Under the pieces are notes generated by a model that saw nothing but the letters and a program-made list of their open reading frames with translations, ran no database searches and had not been told where the DNA came from. A program made the translations under genes and the position numbers. Of a DNA stretch of 64,000 nucleotides, positions 3,243-26,830 are shown piece after piece (within the stretch, counting starts at the first letter, position 1; each line of letters starts with the position of its first letter). This stretch comes from Pseudorhodoferax sp. Leaf267 (lineage in GTDB: Bacteria; Pseudomonadota; Gammaproteobacteria; Burkholderiales; Burkholderiaceae_C), in the NCBI RefSeq assembly GCF_001422405.1, contig NZ_LMMV01000012.1, forward strand, positions 846,830-910,829, written 5' to 3'.

Positions 3243-4139
3243 ATGTCCGAATCCGAACTCATCACATTGCAGCGCGCCAACCAGTCGCTGCGCGCCTTGA
3301 ACGAGAGCCTGCGCAACGCCCAGGCCCAGCTGCTGCAGTCCGAACGCCTGGCCTCGATCGGCCAGCTGGCCGCTGGCGTGGCGCACGAGATCAACAACCC
3401 GATCGGCTACGTGTTCTCCAACTTCGGCACGCTGGAAGGCTACCTCGCGCGCTTGGTGGAGATGCTGGAGGCCTACGAGCAGGCGGAGCCCGCGCTGGCC
3501 GGCAGCGACATCGCCGTCCGGCTCGCGGCCCTGCGCGGGCGTGTCGAACTCGACTACCTGAAGCAGGACATCCCGCTGCTGATGGCCGAGTCGAAGGAGG
3601 GCCTGTCGCGGGTGCGCAAGATCGTCCAAGATCTCAAAGACTTCTCGCGGGTCGACACCCAGCAGGAGTGGGTCTGGGCCTCGCTGCACCAGGGCATCGA
3701 CTCGACCCTGAACATCGTCGCCAACGAGATCAAGTACCGGGCCGACGTGCGCCGCGAGTACGGCGACCTGCCCGACATCGAATGCCTGCCGTCCGAGCTC
3801 AACCAGGTGTTCATGAACCTGCTCGTCAACGCCGCCCATGCGATCGGCCCGGAGCGCGGGCTCATCGTCGTTCGCAGCGGCGACGCCGGCAGCGAGGTCT
3901 GGGTCGAGGTGGAAGACAACGGCAGCGGCATCGCGCCGGAACAACTGGCGCGCATCTTCGATCCCTTCTTCACGACCAAGCCGGTCGGCCGTGGCACGGG
4001 CCTGGGCCTGTCGCTGGCGTACGGCATCGTGCACAAGCACCATGGACGCATCGACGTGCGCAGCGAGCCGGGCCGCGGCTCGTGCTTTCGCGTCACGCTG
4101 CCGGTGCGGCGCGCGGGCGCAGAAGGTGCCGCGCCATGA
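3243..4139 (+). CDS. Sensor histidine kinase, cytoplasmic
   Basis: A 298-residue soluble histidine kinase with no membrane segment and only a short N-terminal coiled coil. The phospho-acceptor is His48 in GVAHEINNP. The ATPase part has the N box (LNQVFMNLLVNAAHAI), D box (VEDNGSGIAPE), F box (DPFFTTKP) and G box (GTGLGLSLAYGIV). With no sensor domain, it probably receives its signal from a partner in the operon. It starts 5 bp after the HDOD gene and overlaps the following receiver gene by ATGA, so that receiver, or the one in the first gene, is the likely phosphotransfer target. Confidence 0.92.
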   Translation: MSESELITLQRANQSLRALNESLRNAQAQLLQSERLASIGQLAAGVAHEINNPIGYVFSNFGTLEGYLARLVEMLEAYEQAEPALAGSDIAVRLAALRGRVELDYLKQDIPLLMAESKEGLSRVRKIVQDLKDFSRVDTQQEWVWASLHQGIDSTLNIVANEIKYRADVRREYGDLPDIECLPSELNQVFMNLLVNAAHAIGPERGLIVVRSGDAGSEVWVEVEDNGSGIAPEQLARIFDPFFTTKPVGRGTGLGLSLAYGIVHKHHGRIDVRSEPGRGSCFRVTLPVRRAGAEGAAP

Positions 4140-21379: not shown

Positions 21380-21499
21380 CCCGCGCAGTGTGTGCCCCAA
21401 GCCCCCTGATAACGCCTGCAGGCTTGCCGCCTGGGTGTTCCTTGCCGCGCGGGGGCTGCGCGGTGCTGGCCGAGAGGCCGAAGTTGAGGAGTGATCCAA
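21380..21499 (+). promoter_or_regulatory. Structured puf leader between bchZ and pufB
   Basis: 120 bp without a convincing gene. Three compact self-complementary elements lie in order: a 10-bp palindrome GCCTGCAGGC at 21414-21423, a hairpin CCGCGC/GCGCGG at 21445-21450 and 21458-21463 with a 7-nt loop, and GGCC-GAGA-GGCC at 21468-21479, a GNRA-type tetraloop. The pufB ribosome-binding site (GAGGAG) follows. No perfect TGT-N12-ACA site was found. Folding suggests an mRNA processing or stability region, as is known for puf transcripts. pufQ is absent. Confidence 0.45.
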
Positions 21500-21652
21500 A
21501 TGGTGCCTGAAGACAGGAGAGGCTCGTTATCCGGGCTGACCGAAGGAGAGGCCAGGGAGTTCCACGGCATCTTCATGGGCAGTTTCATGGGGTTCACGGC
21601 GATCGCCGTGGTGGCCCATGTGCTCGTGTGGATGTGGCGGCCCTGGCTCTGA
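21500..21652 (+). CDS. pufB: LH1 beta polypeptide PufB
   Basis: A 50-residue light-harvesting 1 beta chain. It shows the beta signature: [19 protein letters not shown] with His22 and the bacteriochlorophyll-ligand His40 in [13 protein letters not shown], at the end of the single membrane helix (about 26-46). A GAGGAG ribosome-binding site lies a few bases upstream. Unlike normal puf operons, the next gene is not pufA but a 73-residue ORF 32 bp downstream. Confidence 0.96.
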
Positions 21653-21684
21653 GCTGAAGTAACCAACGCGCCAGGAGGCATGCC

Positions 21685-21906
21685 ATGAATGACAACGCAT
21701 CCGTTTCGACGGCAGCTTATCTACTGCAGAACAAGGGCTACGGGGTCCTGTTCCTGTTCAGCATCGTGTTCCTGCTGGTGGTGGCGCTCGTCAGCCAGGC
21801 CTTGTTCCTGAACTGGCGCGAATGGTTCCCCGGCGCAGAGAGCGAGACCTCGTTGTTCAAGAGTGTGCGGGCAGGGGTCTATACCTTCATGTCGCACCTC
21901 AATTAG
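21685..21906 (+). CDS. Unrecognised single-helix membrane protein between pufB and pufA (orf73)
   Basis: A 73-residue protein that I do not recognise. It sits where pufB and pufA are normally adjacent. AGGAGG (21673-21678) lies 6 nt before the ATG, one of the best ribosome-binding sites here, and its TAG stop is embedded in the ribosome-binding site of pufA (TAGGAG). Residues 1-17 are polar (one Lys), 18-42 form one strongly hydrophobic helix, and 43-73 contain NWREWFPG followed by an amphipathic stretch with Lys59, Arg62 and His71. There is no His in the membrane helix, so it is not an LH1 alpha or beta chain. Size and location resemble PufX or LH1-gamma-type accessory subunits, but I see no sequence match. 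A role in RC-LH1 assembly or ring opening is inference. Confidence 0.8.
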
Positions 21907-21917
21907 GAGAAACAAGC

Positions 21918-22121
21918 ATGTGGAAAATCTGGTTGTTGTTCGATCCACGGCGCGCGCTGGTGGCCCTTGCGGCCTTCCTGTTCGTGCTGGCGCTGATCAT
22001 CCATTTCATCTTGCTGAGCACCAACAAGTTCAACTGGCTCGACGGTCCCCGCACCGCCGTGGTCAGCCAGAACTCGTCGATGCCGGCCGCCGTGCCGGCA
22101 ACGGCGGCGCCAACGAAGTAG
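21918..22121 (+). CDS. pufA: LH1 alpha polypeptide PufA
   Basis: A 67-residue light-harvesting 1 alpha chain. The N-terminus [12 protein letters not shown] is the classic alpha start; the membrane helix (about 13-35) carries the bacteriochlorophyll ligand His29 in [12 protein letters not shown], followed by FNWLDG. A tail of about 20 residues rich in Ala, Pro, Ser and Thr extends beyond the usual end and may be trimmed or exposed at the periplasmic face. The ribosome-binding site overlaps the stop of orf73, coupling its translation to that gene. A strong hairpin follows the stop. Confidence 0.96.
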
Positions 22122-22128
22122 CGCAGGC

Positions 22129-22159
22129 GGAGACGGGCCGGCGTTGCCGGCGCGTCTCC
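22129..22159 (+). other. Stable intercistronic hairpin between pufA and pufL
   Basis: GGAGACGGGCCGGC (22129-22142), loop GTT, GCCGGCGCGTCTCC (22146-22159): a 14-bp GC-rich stem with one G-G mismatch, starting 7 nt after the pufA stop. There is no T run, so it is not a simple terminator. In Rhodobacter, hairpins at this spot protect the LH1 mRNA from 3' exonucleases and set the LH1 excess over reaction centres; the same role is inferred. The remaining 70 nt to pufL hold nothing else evident. Confidence 0.7.
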
Positions 22160-22229
22160 CCCGCGCATCCCCATCCGGGCCCCACGTCAAGCGGGCGCCC
22201 TTCATCTTCTGGTCCCGGAGGTGGCTGCC

Positions 22230-23054
22230 ATGGCCATGTTGAACTTCGAGCGCAAGTACCGTGTCCGCGGCGGTACGCTGCTGGGAGGCGATCTGTTCGA
22301 CTTCTGGGTCGGGCCGTTCTATGTCGGCTTCTTCGGTGTCACCACCGCGTTCTTCTCGCTGGTGGGCACCCTGCTCATCGTGTGGGGTGCCTCGCAGGGA
22401 CCGACCTGGAACCTGTGGCAGATCAACATCGCGCCGCCCGACCTCAGCTACGGCCTGAGCCTGGCGCCGCTGATGCAGGGCGGGCTCTGGCAGATCGTCA
22501 CCTTCTGCGCCACCGGTGCCTTCATCAGCTGGGCACTGCGCGAGGTCGAGATCTGCCGAAAACTCGGCATCGGCTACCACATCCCGGTGGCCTTCGGCTT
22601 CGCCATCCTGGCCTACGTCACGCTGGTGATCGTGCGCCCGCTGCTGATGGGCGCCTGGGGGCATGGCTTCCCGTACGGGATCATGAGCCACCTGGACTGG
22701 GTGTCCAACACCGGCTACCAGTACCTGCATTTCCACTACAACCCGGCGCACATGCTGGCGGTGAGCTTCTTCTTCGCCACCACGTTCGCGCTGTCGCTGC
22801 ACGGGGCCCTGGTGCTGTCGGCCACCAACCCGGGCAAGGGCGAAGTGGTGAAGACGGCCGAGCATGAGAACACCTTCTTCCGCGATGCCATCGGCTACTC
22901 CATCGGCACGCTGGGCATCCACCGCCTGGGCCTGTTCCTGGCGCTGTCGGCCTCCTTCTGGAGCGCCATCTGCATCGTCATCAGCGGACCGTTCTGGACC
23001 AAGGGTTGGCCCGAGTGGTGGGGCTGGTGGCTGCGGCTTCCGGTCTGGAACTGA
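22230..23054 (+). CDS. pufL: Reaction centre L subunit PufL
   Basis: A 274-residue core subunit of the type II reaction centre with five membrane helices. The N-terminus [20 protein letters not shown] and [17 protein letters not shown] are nearly invariant in PufL. Bacteriochlorophyll and Fe ligand His residues are in [25 protein letters not shown] and [15 protein letters not shown] 22230 was chosen because PufL proteins begin MAM(L/S)FERKYR; a GTG at 22221 is possible but adds unconserved residues. pufM follows after 18 bp. Confidence 0.97.
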
Positions 23055-25149: not shown

Positions 25150-25870
25150 GGCATGCGGTGCGGTGTCTGCCGACGTGCGCAAGCGCCGCACGCCGACGTC
25201 GCGGGCAAGCGCAGGTGGCAGCATGGCCGCATGCTCCAGCACGACTTGCAACACGCGCAAACCCGCCCGACGACCGCACCCAAATCGGATGCTGCCAAAC
25301 GCTTCGCCGCGGGTCTGCACATGGACCTGGACGTGGCGCCGAACGGCAAGGCCGTGCGCCACGATCGTTTCTTCGACCAGGTCTGCGAGCGCGGCGCGCT
25401 GATGGCAGCGCGCCCTGACGGCTGGAGCCGGATGGGGCATCGGGCCTGAGGCAGGTGCTGGCGCCTTTGCAGGCCGTTCGGGCGGTTCTCGGGCGTGGTC
25501 AGCACGATGCTGCGCACCAGGGGCGGGTCCAACTGCGCGCGGATGCCGTGCGGCGCACTCGGCAGCGGCGTGGTCTGGATCTCTGCCGAGCGCTCGCTGC
25601 CGTACAGCAGTGCGGCGTCGACTTCGCCCGATGCCAGCCAGCGCCGCAGCGTGCATGTGTAGCCCATGGTCACACGCATGCGCACGGTCGGGTACTGCTG
25701 CGCCACGGTGGCAACCAACGCGCTGGTCAGCAGACCGATGGTGCTGGGCAGCAGCCCCAGCGTGACCACACCGCTGACCACGCACGAAGCAGCCCCGGCG
25801 TGCATGGTCCAGAGCGCCAGCGAGATGCTGCCGCAGGTGGCAGGCCCCGCGTGCGCGGCATCGACGCGGG
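25150..25870 (-). pseudogene. Degenerate LysR-type regulator remnant
   Basis: 729 bp between pufC and the next LysR gene contain no intact gene. On the minus strand, one frame encodes VSGVVTLGLLPSTIGLL, YPTVRMRVTMGYTCTLRRWL and DAALLYGSE (about 25560-25800), which is the start of a LysR effector-binding domain. A different frame further 3' encodes LADLVEETIVAHGLAVRRHV, like the later part of that domain. The helix-turn-helix part is missing. A frameshift plus 5' loss means it cannot make a regulator. It resembles the intact neighbour (EAYSGFLREWL, VALLYGE), so it is probably a decayed tandem duplicate. Boundaries are approximate. Confidence 0.6.
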
Positions 25871-25876
25871 CGCATG

Positions 25877-26830
25877 TCATCCGGCAGACGAAGACGCAGG
25901 AGCATGCGCACCCAGCCAGCGTGCTGGCCATGCGCCACAGGCCGTCATCTCTTGCAGCACGCGCACGATCAATTCGTTGACGGCCGCGGTCGCCACCGTC
26001 TGCGGCCGCGTGAGGCTGGTGGCCCGCACCAGGCGGCGCGTCATGCCGGGGCTGTCGATGACGGCGGTGCGCAGGCGCTGCGCCGTCACTTCCTCGGCGA
26101 CAGCGCCGGCCGGCAGGATGGTGCTGCCGATGCCGTCCTCCGTCGCGCGCTTCACACTGCCCAGCGATTCGATTTCGGCCACCACGTCCAGTGCGACGCC
26201 CAGCGGTGCGCAGGCCTCGTCGATGATCTTGCGCAGCCCGTGTTCGCGGCCCGGCAGCACCAGCGGCCATTTGGCCAGCGCCTGCAGCGTGAGCTTTTTG
26301 GGCATACGCGTGTTGCCGGCATGGGTGATGAGCACCAGCCGGTCGTCCAGCAGCGGCAGCTTGGCCAGGCCAGGCTCCGGCGCCTCGCCGTACAGCAGGG
26401 CCACGTCCAGCCGGCCGGACTGCAACCACTCGCGCAGGAAGCCGCTGTAGGCCTCCACCAGCTTCAGGCGCACGCGCGGCAGCCGCTCGCGGCAGGCGCG
26501 CAGGATGGGCAGCGTGGCCACCAGCGCCACGGTGGTCGGCAGGCCGATCGCCACCTCGCCGTGCGGTTCGGAGATCGCTTCCTGCACGGCCGCGCGGGCG
26601 CGCTCGGCATCGGCCAGCACGACGCGGGCATGCTCCAGGAACACGCTGCCCACCGCCGTCAGCGCCATGCCGCGGCTGGAGCGCTCGAACAATTGCGCGC
26701 CCAGCTCGTGCTCGAGCGCGGCGATCTGCTGGCCCAGTGCGGGCTGGGCCACATGCAGGCGTGTGGATGCCTTGAGCAGGCTGCCGGCCTCGCTGATGCC
26801 GACGAAATTGCGCAGTTGCTTCAGTTCCAT
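25877..26830 (-). CDS. LysR-type regulator of the acyl-CoA gene cluster
   Basis: A 317-residue LysR regulator. The helix-turn-helix is at about 1-60 (MELKQLRNFVGISEAGSLLK, ARLHVAQPALGQQIAALE-like), followed by the effector domain (EVAIGLPTTVALV, EAYSGFLREWLQSGRLDVALLYG, LVLPGREHGLRKIIDEA). It is divergent from the maoC/acyl-CoA dehydrogenase genes across 140 bp that contain an inverted repeat, the usual LysR arrangement. It probably senses an acyl-CoA or dicarboxylate of that pathway. The C-terminal ~20 residues are poorly conserved and run up to the decayed LysR copy. Confidence 0.9.
   Translation of the reverse strand: MELKQLRNFVGISEAGSLLKASTRLHVAQPALGQQIAALEHELGAQLFERSSRGMALTAVGSVFLEHARVVLADAERARAAVQEAISEPHGEVAIGLPTTVALVATLPILRACRERLPRVRLKLVEAYSGFLREWLQSGRLDVALLYGEAPEPGLAKLPLLDDRLVLITHAGNTRMPKKLTLQALAKWPLVLPGREHGLRKIIDEACAPLGVALDVVAEIESLGSVKRATEDGIGSTILPAGAVAEEVTAQRLRTAVIDSPGMTRRLVRATSLTRPQTVATAAVNELIVRVLQEMTACGAWPARWLGAHAPASSSAG

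What the first reader, a model, noticed from the sequence alone, without database searches (positions are those of the whole stretch)
21685..21906. Extra membrane subunit gene (orf73) inserted between pufB and pufA: candidate new RC-LH1 component
In puf operons known to me, pufB and pufA are adjacent. Here a 73-residue single-helix protein with an excellent ribosome-binding site lies between them, and its stop codon forms part of the pufA ribosome-binding site, so it should be made at LH1-like levels. It has no His in the helix, so it does not bind bacteriochlorophyll like an alpha or beta chain. Its size and topology recall PufX, LH1-gamma and protein-U, which shape the LH1 ring and quinone exchange, but the sequence is not recognisably any of them. 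It is the best candidate in this window for an undescribed component.
Basis: partly seen in the sequence, partly recalled or inferred. Interest (0 to 1): 0.82.

Follow-up and report, generated by a model that had tools for sequence, protein, structure and literature searches.

The report
Pigmentless LH1-beta copy in puf operon
The small gene between the two antenna genes of this purple bacterium is a relative of the LH1 beta antenna protein that has lost its bacteriochlorophyll-binding histidine; it was noted before as an unnamed reading frame in related bacteria, is kept by most of their sampled phototrophic kin, and its job is unknown but can be tested directly.

Summary
In detail: an intact 73-codon gene with a strong ribosome-binding site lies between pufB and pufA, and its stop codon overlaps the pufA ribosome-binding site. 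Two premises fail. The arrangement is in print: ORF2 of Rubrivivax gelatinosus (Nagashima 1994, as cited in PMC12817894) and ORF74 of Roseateles depolymerans, co-transcribed with pufBA and strongly induced by starvation (PMC10037100). And the protein is recognisable: its family profile matches LH1-beta chains (E 1.3e-14) and is homologous over full length to long LH1-beta, extension included (hhalign 99.6%, score 117; 60 shuffled controls at most 24.5). The bacteriochlorophyll-ligating His is kept in 106 of 106 unique PufB but in 1 of 99 orf73 sequences; 76 of 99 have Gln. The gene is present in 54 of 62 resolvable puf operons of the family sample, each time between pufB and pufA; 7 of the other 8 have a long PufB. 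It forms one clade under purifying selection. Related genes upstream of pufB elsewhere link it, less securely, to PufQ. Most likely it is a pigment-free pseudo-beta of RC-LH1; a PufQ-like assembly role is the main rival.

The parts
21500..21652 (+). pufB, short LH1 beta (50 aa from ATG 21500, ends at WRPWL); SD GAGGAG 21486-21491
   Evidence: PF00556 E 4.2e-13; NF040862 E 2.6e-26, both run on the frame from 21503
21673..21678 (+). AGGAGG ribosome-binding site of orf73, spacing 6
   Evidence: sequence; anti-SD duplex -10.3 kcal/mol
21685..21906 (+). orf73: His-less paralogue of long LH1 beta ('pseudo-beta'); ortholog of ORF74 of Roseateles depolymerans
   Evidence: PMC10037100
21796..21798 (+). 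Gln38 codon, at the place of the BChl-ligating His of LH1 beta
   Evidence: alignments; residue counts
21829..21903 (+). C-terminal extension (P49-N73: PGAE ... [10 protein letters not shown]), homologous to the extension of long LH1 beta; predicted helix 57-72 (low confidence)
   Evidence: C half score 37.3, 50 shuffles at most 10.5
21904..21909 (+). TAG stop of orf73 overlapping the SD (TAGGAG) of pufA
   Evidence: sequence
21918..22121 (+). pufA, LH1 alpha (67 aa)
   Evidence: PF00556 E 7.6e-17; NF040861 E 4.4e-22
22121..22166 (+). G+C-rich stem-loop just after pufA, in the place of known puf intercistronic hairpins; would leave pufB-orf73-pufA as one stabilised 5' message
   Evidence: fold of 22100-22235, -72.7 kcal/mol, z -2.25, 4 of 200 shuffles as low; function inferred
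22230..23054 (+). pufL
   Evidence: PF00124
23073..24044 (+). pufM
   Evidence: PF00124
24041..25147 (+). pufC (tetrahaem cytochrome subunit)
   Evidence: PF02276 E 1.1e-137

Best explanation
orf73 arose from a copy of the long form of LH1 beta (PufB). It kept the beta-type transmembrane helix, its WRxW end and the C-terminal extension, and lost both antenna histidines, so most members can no longer hold a bacteriochlorophyll the way a beta chain does (shown at sequence level). It is co-transcribed with pufB and pufA (shown in Roseateles by others) and should be well translated (inferred from its ribosome-binding site). The most likely mechanism, inferred: a pigment-free 'pseudo-beta' that joins the RC-LH1 complex in a beta-like orientation (N-terminus in the cytoplasm), at the edge of the ring or between beta chains. 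Its conserved C-terminal helix there makes the periplasmic contact that the extension of long beta makes in species that lack the gene; this would shape or seal the ring, or keep a quinone path open. That it is a His-less beta paralogue I hold at about 0.95; that it is a stable RC-LH1 subunit at about 0.5.
For: Homology: phmmer of orf73 alone already gives antenna chains (8z81_B 1.8e-4, 9m8m_B, an LH1 beta chain, 2.7e-4). The 21-member profile gives 8z81_B 1.3e-14, and 42 of its 49 matches are antenna chains. hhalign against long PufB scores 117 over 73 columns (60 column-shuffled controls at most 24.5, reversed 11.0). N and C halves each match on their own (69.0 vs at most 14.9; 37.3 vs at most 10.5; 50 shuffles each). 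PufA, another single-helix antenna chain, does not match (2.8%). Ligand loss: residue 38 is Q 76, T 8, L 3, A 3, S 3, K 3, C 1, G 1, H 1 of 99, and position 20 (His -18 of beta) is His in 3 of 99, while the ligand His is kept in 93 of 93 unique short and 13 of 13 unique long PufB; W44 98, R45 96, W47 92, G50 99 of 99. Conservation and single origin: 54 of 62 resolvable operons; one clade, 91/96, in a tree of 45 orf73, 41 short PufB, 13 long PufB and 7 upstream genes; dN<dS in 12 of 12 pairs. Complementarity in the family sample: 54 short beta with orf73, 7 long beta without, 0 long beta with it, 1 short beta without. Expression: pufA, pufB and ORF74 are the three loci most reduced in the sigma-factor mutant, share a 1-kb message and changed most under starvation (PMC10037100). 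The same paper says puc genes were not found in that genome, so an LH2-only role is unlikely.
Against: No orf73-type chain is among the PDB matches; the nearest solved RC by PufM (9m8m) has a 67-residue beta. Genes upstream of pufB are kin, and through them perhaps PufQ, which is a regulator and not known as a ring subunit. The complement with long beta rests on few independent events: 2 on supported branches, 7 on all branches of a quick pufL tree; none goes the other way, but the sign test cannot reach significance. In other Gammaproteobacteria upstream kin coexist with a long beta (L117, L172), so the two are not exclusive in general. G115 has a short beta, no orf73 and only 113 bases before pufB. 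AlphaFold2 is of middling confidence (mean pLDDT 68.7) and Foldseek found nothing.
Confidence: 0.55

Rival explanations
1. PufQ-like assembly factor: the protein is not part of the finished ring but helps LH1 assembly or pigment supply (for example by holding ferrochelatase or handing on tetrapyrroles), as is proposed for PufQ in Rhodobacter, and is made with the antenna so that pigment and apoprotein supply stay matched.
For: Related genes lie between bchZ and pufB, the PufQ place, in other Gammaproteobacteria and in one family of the same order. Their 14-member profile matches orf73 (98.3%) and PufQ (92.6%, E 4.5e-7, 0 of 40 shuffles as high). Direct orf73-PufQ (34%) exceeds 100 of 100 shuffles. 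PufQ loss lowers BChl and RC-LH1, and it is proposed to limit haem synthesis through ferrochelatase (PMC5725709, passages).
Against: Direct orf73-PufQ comes from the helix half only (69%; C half 0.0%, 47 of 50 shuffles as high). The C halves of orf73 and the upstream genes do not match either (9.4%, 1 of 50 shuffles as high). The 7 upstream sequences outside family f195 do not match PufQ (8.4%, 1 of 40 shuffles as high). Pfam lists PufQ for none of four upstream proteins, nor for orf73 or its 21-member set. orf73 keeps the WRxW end that the PufQ sequences lack, and does not sit in the PufQ place.
Confidence: 0.33
2. A pigmented beta variant: Gln38 ligates a bacteriochlorophyll in place of His, so that the protein is a spectral or structural variant of LH1 beta.
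For: Gln is the residue in 76 of 99; W47, in the place of the beta Trp +9 (recalled as H-bond donor to the BChl acetyl group), is kept in 92 of 99.
Against: Other sequences have T, L, A, S, K, C or G there (22 of 99); A, L and G (7) cannot ligate and the rest are not usual ligands (recalled). The second antenna His is lost too. No second alpha gene is seen in the operon to pair with.
Confidence: 0.1
3. A decaying pufB duplicate without function.
For: The antenna His is lost, and it evolves faster than pufB (branch lengths).
Against: Kept in 54 of 62 operons, no inner stops in the listed orf73 matches, dN<dS in 12 of 12 pairs, near-invariant motifs.
Confidence: 0.02

Closest known systems
LH1 beta polypeptide (PufB), long form, e.g. 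PDB 8z81_B, 9m8m_B, 7xxf_B
   Same: Homologous over the full length, including the extension after WRxWxPG; same operon; same predicted topology by homology.
   Different: No BChl-ligating His (Gln in most), no His -18; it coexists with a true short PufB; its own conserved C-terminal motif (GVYTFMSHL in the window).
ORF74 of Roseateles depolymerans and ORF2 of Rubrivivax gelatinosus
   Same: Same gene by place and, for Roseateles (L011), by sequence: the L011 copy has 74 codons, as the name ORF74 says; co-transcribed with pufBA.
   Different: No difference found. The passages I read give no function and no kinship to beta; one paper compared ORF2 with alpha chains only and noted the missing His. 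I have no ORF2 sequence; its identity is by place.
PufQ
   Same: Small single-helix protein of the puf operon; profile link by way of the genes upstream of pufB (92.6%).
   Different: Lies before pufB; direct match weak (34%) and from the helix half only; lacks the WRxW and PGAE motifs.
PufX, protein-U, protein-W, LH1-gamma
   Same: Small single-helix proteins of RC-LH1.
   Different: None among the 49 PDB chains matched by the family profile; PufX lies after pufM.

Membership tests
LH1 beta (PufB) | Sequence homology to LH1 beta chains | tested here: met
   Profile to PDB 1.3e-14; hhalign 99.6% to long PufB, 97.4% to short PufB. Single-sequence library scans miss it: for the window protein no PF00556 or NF040862; PF00556 seen weakly in 4 of 21 members (best 0.089), NF040862 in 3 of 21 (best 2.6e-6).
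LH1 beta (PufB) | BChl-ligating His (position 0) in the helix | tested here: not met
   Gln38 in the window; His in 1 of 99 orf73, against 106 of 106 unique PufB.
LH1 beta (PufB) | Second His at -18 | tested here: not met
   Gly20 in the window; His in 3 of 99.
LH1 beta (PufB) | Pairs with alpha in the LH1 ring and holds BChl | not testable with these tools
   Needs biochemistry or a structure.
PufQ (PF05398) | Match to the PufQ family model | tested here: not met
   Not listed for orf73 or the 21 members; in the window's genome the model's only match (below cut-off) lies on another contig.
PufQ (PF05398) | Gene between bchZ and pufB | tested here: not met
   orf73 lies after pufB. PufQ precedes pufB in Roseobacter litoralis and Sulfitobacter guttiformis.
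PufQ (PF05398) | Profile-level homology | tested here: inconclusive
   Direct 34% (0 of 100 shuffles as high); by way of the upstream genes 98.3% and 92.6%, but C halves of orf73 and upstream genes do not match.
PufX | Gene after pufM; PufX sequence | tested here: not met
   pufC follows pufM here; no PufX chain among the 49 PDB matches.
LH1-gamma / protein-U / protein-W | Sequence match to the solved chains | tested here: not met
   No such chain among 49 PDB matches up to E 10. That 7F0L holds PufX and protein-U is in PMC9640540; which entries hold gamma or protein-W chains is recalled.
LH1-gamma / protein-U / protein-W | Physical presence in purified RC-LH1 | not testable with these tools
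   Needs mass spectrometry or cryo-EM.

The most novel reading that the evidence does not exclude
orf73, the related genes upstream of pufB in other Gammaproteobacteria, and PufQ are one family of former LH1-beta antenna chains that (all but a few) lost their pigment ligand and became helpers or regulators of photosystem assembly. This would give the long-enigmatic PufQ an origin (an antenna chain) and Betaproteobacteria their missing counterpart. Against it: long PufB and PufQ do not match directly (0.7%, 25 of 100 shuffles as high).
Probability: 0.3. Interest if true: 0.75.

Novelty: new variant of a known kind. Interest (0 to 1): 0.5.

Why it matters
A third antenna-type gene, kept by 54 of 62 readable puf operons of the family sample and expressed with the LH1 genes in the one species measured, has stood as an unnamed frame since 1994 and was compared only with alpha chains in the paper I could read. 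Recognising it as a beta paralogue without its pigment ligand turns 'ORF2 of unknown function' into a concrete question: pseudo-beta in the ring, or antenna chain turned assembly factor. It can be answered with one purified complex and one deletion strain in culturable, harmless species. If the profile link to PufQ holds, that regulator would gain an evolutionary origin.

Tried and rejected
Rejected: PufX, gamma, protein-U or protein-W kinship; alpha-chain kinship (PufA 2.8%); direct PufQ membership; an 'invariant Gln ligand' (true for the first 21 relatives, false for the wider set); decay.

Led nowhere: Foldseek against the PDB with the AlphaFold2 model gave no match. The pufL-tree test of the long-beta/orf73 complement has too few independent pairs. 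Two searches for more upstream genes returned only the seed genomes; the next two gave seven new sequences (read). I could not read Nagashima 1994 or Suyama 2002, so what they say beyond the citing papers is unknown to me. In one search the codon comparison is ungapped; the pufA values are meaningless where tails differ in length and are not used. Fisher p 1.6e-8 ignores kinship and is not relied on.

Dropped rows: L010, L017, L116 and L124-L127 were left out as repeats and L024 as a 25-residue fragment; 108 entries, 99 unique, remained for orf73. Two pufL/M genomes are the unresolved 2 of 64: G209 (contig end) and G374 (no pufB/pufA in the stretch fetched). The upstream gene of G1041 (L119) entered the set by reading, not by a profile hit. 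The tree used a random part of the sequences (45 of 99 orf73, 41 of 93 short PufB).

Full report
What is there. Window 21685-21906 (+) is an intact 73-codon frame between pufB (ATG at 21500, stop 21650-21652) and pufA (21918-22121). AGGAGG stands 6 bases before its ATG, and its TAG stop overlaps the TAGGAG before pufA. Computed SD pairing is -10.3 kcal/mol for orf73, -8.8 for pufB and -7.3 for pufA; over 106 loci (some organisms twice) the means are -7.7, -8.4 and -7.4. The genes around it are an ordinary bch-puf cluster with pufL, pufM and pufC. A strong stem-loop follows pufA at about 22121-22166 (z -2.25). It lies in the place of the stem-loops downstream of pufBA that in Rhodobacter raise antenna over RC message (passage in PMC5725709), so orf73 should share the antenna-level message (inferred).

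What is already in print. PMC12817894 (section 8 read in full) says that the Rubrivivax gelatinosus puf operon has two frames of unknown function, ORF1 before pufB and ORF2 before pufA, citing Nagashima 1994 (not held). It aligned ORF2 with alpha chains only, found 10.1-14.5% identity to PufA2 and no His at the alpha ligand place. PMC10037100 (passages) lists ORF74 of Roseateles depolymerans, locus RS05155 between pufB RS05150 and pufA RS05160. [quoted passage not shown] The Roseateles depolymerans locus found here (L011) carries the ortholog, 74 codons from its ATG at 3935. Text searches listed no further paper that from its listing bears on the gene. Passages were read in PMC12817894, PMC10037100, PMC12654162, PMC10214105, PMC9640540, PMC5374385 and PMC5725709; none of these passages gives it a function or calls it a beta relative.

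What it is. A single-sequence search of all PDB chains gives weak matches to antenna chains (8z81_B 1.8e-4, 9m8m_B 2.7e-4). A profile of 21 relatives gives 8z81_B 1.3e-14, 9m8m_B 9e-12, 7xxf_B 4e-11 and 37 further antenna chains down to E 0.12; of the last nine matches (E 0.21-4.4) two are LH1 beta chains and seven are unrelated. Profile against profile, orf73 (99 unique sequences) matches long PufB of 74-76 residues at 99.6%, score 117 over 73 columns, short PufB at 97.4% (54.6), and PufA at 2.8% (15.6). Sixty column-shuffled versions of long PufB reach at most 24.5 and the reversed one 11.0. Both halves match separately: helix half 69.0 (50 shuffles at most 14.9), extension half 37.3 (at most 10.5). 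So the C-terminal part of orf73 is the same piece as the extension of long beta chains, with WRxWxPG at the junction.

What it has lost. In the alignment the BChl-ligating His of beta faces Gln38 and His -18 faces Gly20. Among 99 unique sequences position 38 is Q 76, T 8, L 3, A 3, S 3, K 3, C 1, G 1, H 1; position 20 is His in 3. W44 (98), R45 (96), W47 (92), P49 (98), G50 (99), Y66 (95) and S70 (97) are kept. As control, the ligand His is present in 93 of 93 unique short and 13 of 13 unique long PufB. The first 21 relatives had an invariant Gln; the wider set shows that a conserved Gln ligand is not general.

How far it reaches. In 399 genomes of the window's family, 64 have pufL/M and 62 give a profile hit, some of which are ordinary beta chains. 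After reading the operons: 54 have a short PufB with orf73 between pufB and pufA, 7 have a long PufB and no orf73, 1 (G115) has a short PufB and no orf73, and 2 are unresolved. In the order sample 47 of 399 genomes hit. The 43 of them outside the family divide into 34 with orf73 between pufB and pufA, 5 with long PufB alone, 3 with a short PufB and an upstream gene, and 1 on a contig that ends before pufA; no pufL/M control was run there. In the class sample 9 of 369 genomes hit; none of the 7 outside the order shows the B-orf-A order, but the number of phototrophs in that sample is not known. The complement with long beta is striking, but a quick pufL tree of 126 loci gives only 2 independent changes on supported branches (7 on the best tree), none in the opposite direction, so it is suggestive only.

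Origin and selection. In a tree of 106 sequences and 74 columns orf73 is one clade (91/96) apart from all PufB; bootstraps had not settled. dN is below dS in 12 of 12 orf73 pairs, for example 0.076/0.353 for the window against L003.

Kin upstream of pufB. In Gammaproteobacteria G810 and G903, in six genomes of family f195 by profile and a seventh (G1041) by reading, in four of 28 genomes of family f23 of the same order (G466, G613, G583, G1509) and on a Thiodictyon plasmid, a small gene lies between bchZ and pufB. At the ligand place these 14 sequences have Arg 10, Tyr 1, Leu 1, Trp 1 and His 1; the His is in G810's copy. Their profile matches orf73 (98.3%), long beta (98.8%) and PufQ (92.6%, E 4.5e-7, 0 of 40 shuffles as high). 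Results against a single family: the PufQ link rests mostly on the f195 sequences (83.0%), and the other seven alone do not show it (8.4%, 1 of 40 shuffles as high). Long beta and PufQ do not match directly (0.7%, 25 of 100 shuffles as high), while direct orf73-PufQ is 34% (0 of 100 as high) and comes from the helix half only. The C halves of orf73 and the upstream genes do not match (9.4%, 1 of 50), although those of long beta and the upstream genes do (94.8%, 0 of 50). Pfam lists no PufQ match for four upstream proteins. So a chain beta - orf73 and beta - upstream gene is well supported; the step to PufQ is not secure.

Model. AlphaFold2 gives helices 6-42, 44-47 and 57-72, confident (blocks of 89-92) only for residues 21-40; no Foldseek match.

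Verdict. The gene is real, conserved and already noted as an unnamed frame. What is added here is that it is an LH1-beta paralogue without its pigment ligand, present in 54 of 62 readable operons of its family sample, perhaps akin to PufQ. Most likely it is a pigment-free pseudo-beta of RC-LH1 (about 0.5), next a PufQ-like assembly factor (about 0.33).

Noticed in passing
window 25518-25775 (-), beside 25877-26830 (-): A fragment of a LysR substrate-binding domain (PF03466 positions 5-90 of 209, E 8e-11) lies between pufC and an intact LysR gene; it looks like the remnant of a second LysR gene.
   Followed up: partly
G466, G613, G583, G1509 (L141-L143, L190): Four of 28 searched genomes of a family of the same order (f23) have the beta-like gene without the antenna His upstream of pufB, in the PufQ place, instead of between pufB and pufA.
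   Followed up: partly
L163:2120-2344 (Thiodictyon syntrophicum plasmid pTs485): A 'hypothetical protein' between bchZ and pufB contains WRPW, as a beta chain does, but has Arg in place of the antenna His; it belongs with the upstream genes.
   Followed up: yes
L117:1087-1332 (G810): The one upstream gene of 14 that keeps a His at the antenna ligand place, with W at +6 and +9 as in beta; it may be closest to the beta ancestor or may still bind pigment.
   Followed up: no
PDB 8k5o chain 4: A single-copy 105-residue 'antenna complex alpha/beta subunit domain-containing protein' in an RC-LH1 entry matches the orf73 profile weakly (8.3e-4); a possible precedent for a one-copy odd beta chain. Its His was not checked.
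   Followed up: no
window genus g1 (G000, G376 against G069, G175, G253, G318): Within the window's genus only 2 of 6 sampled genomes carry pufL/M, so phototrophy is patchy there.
   Followed up: no
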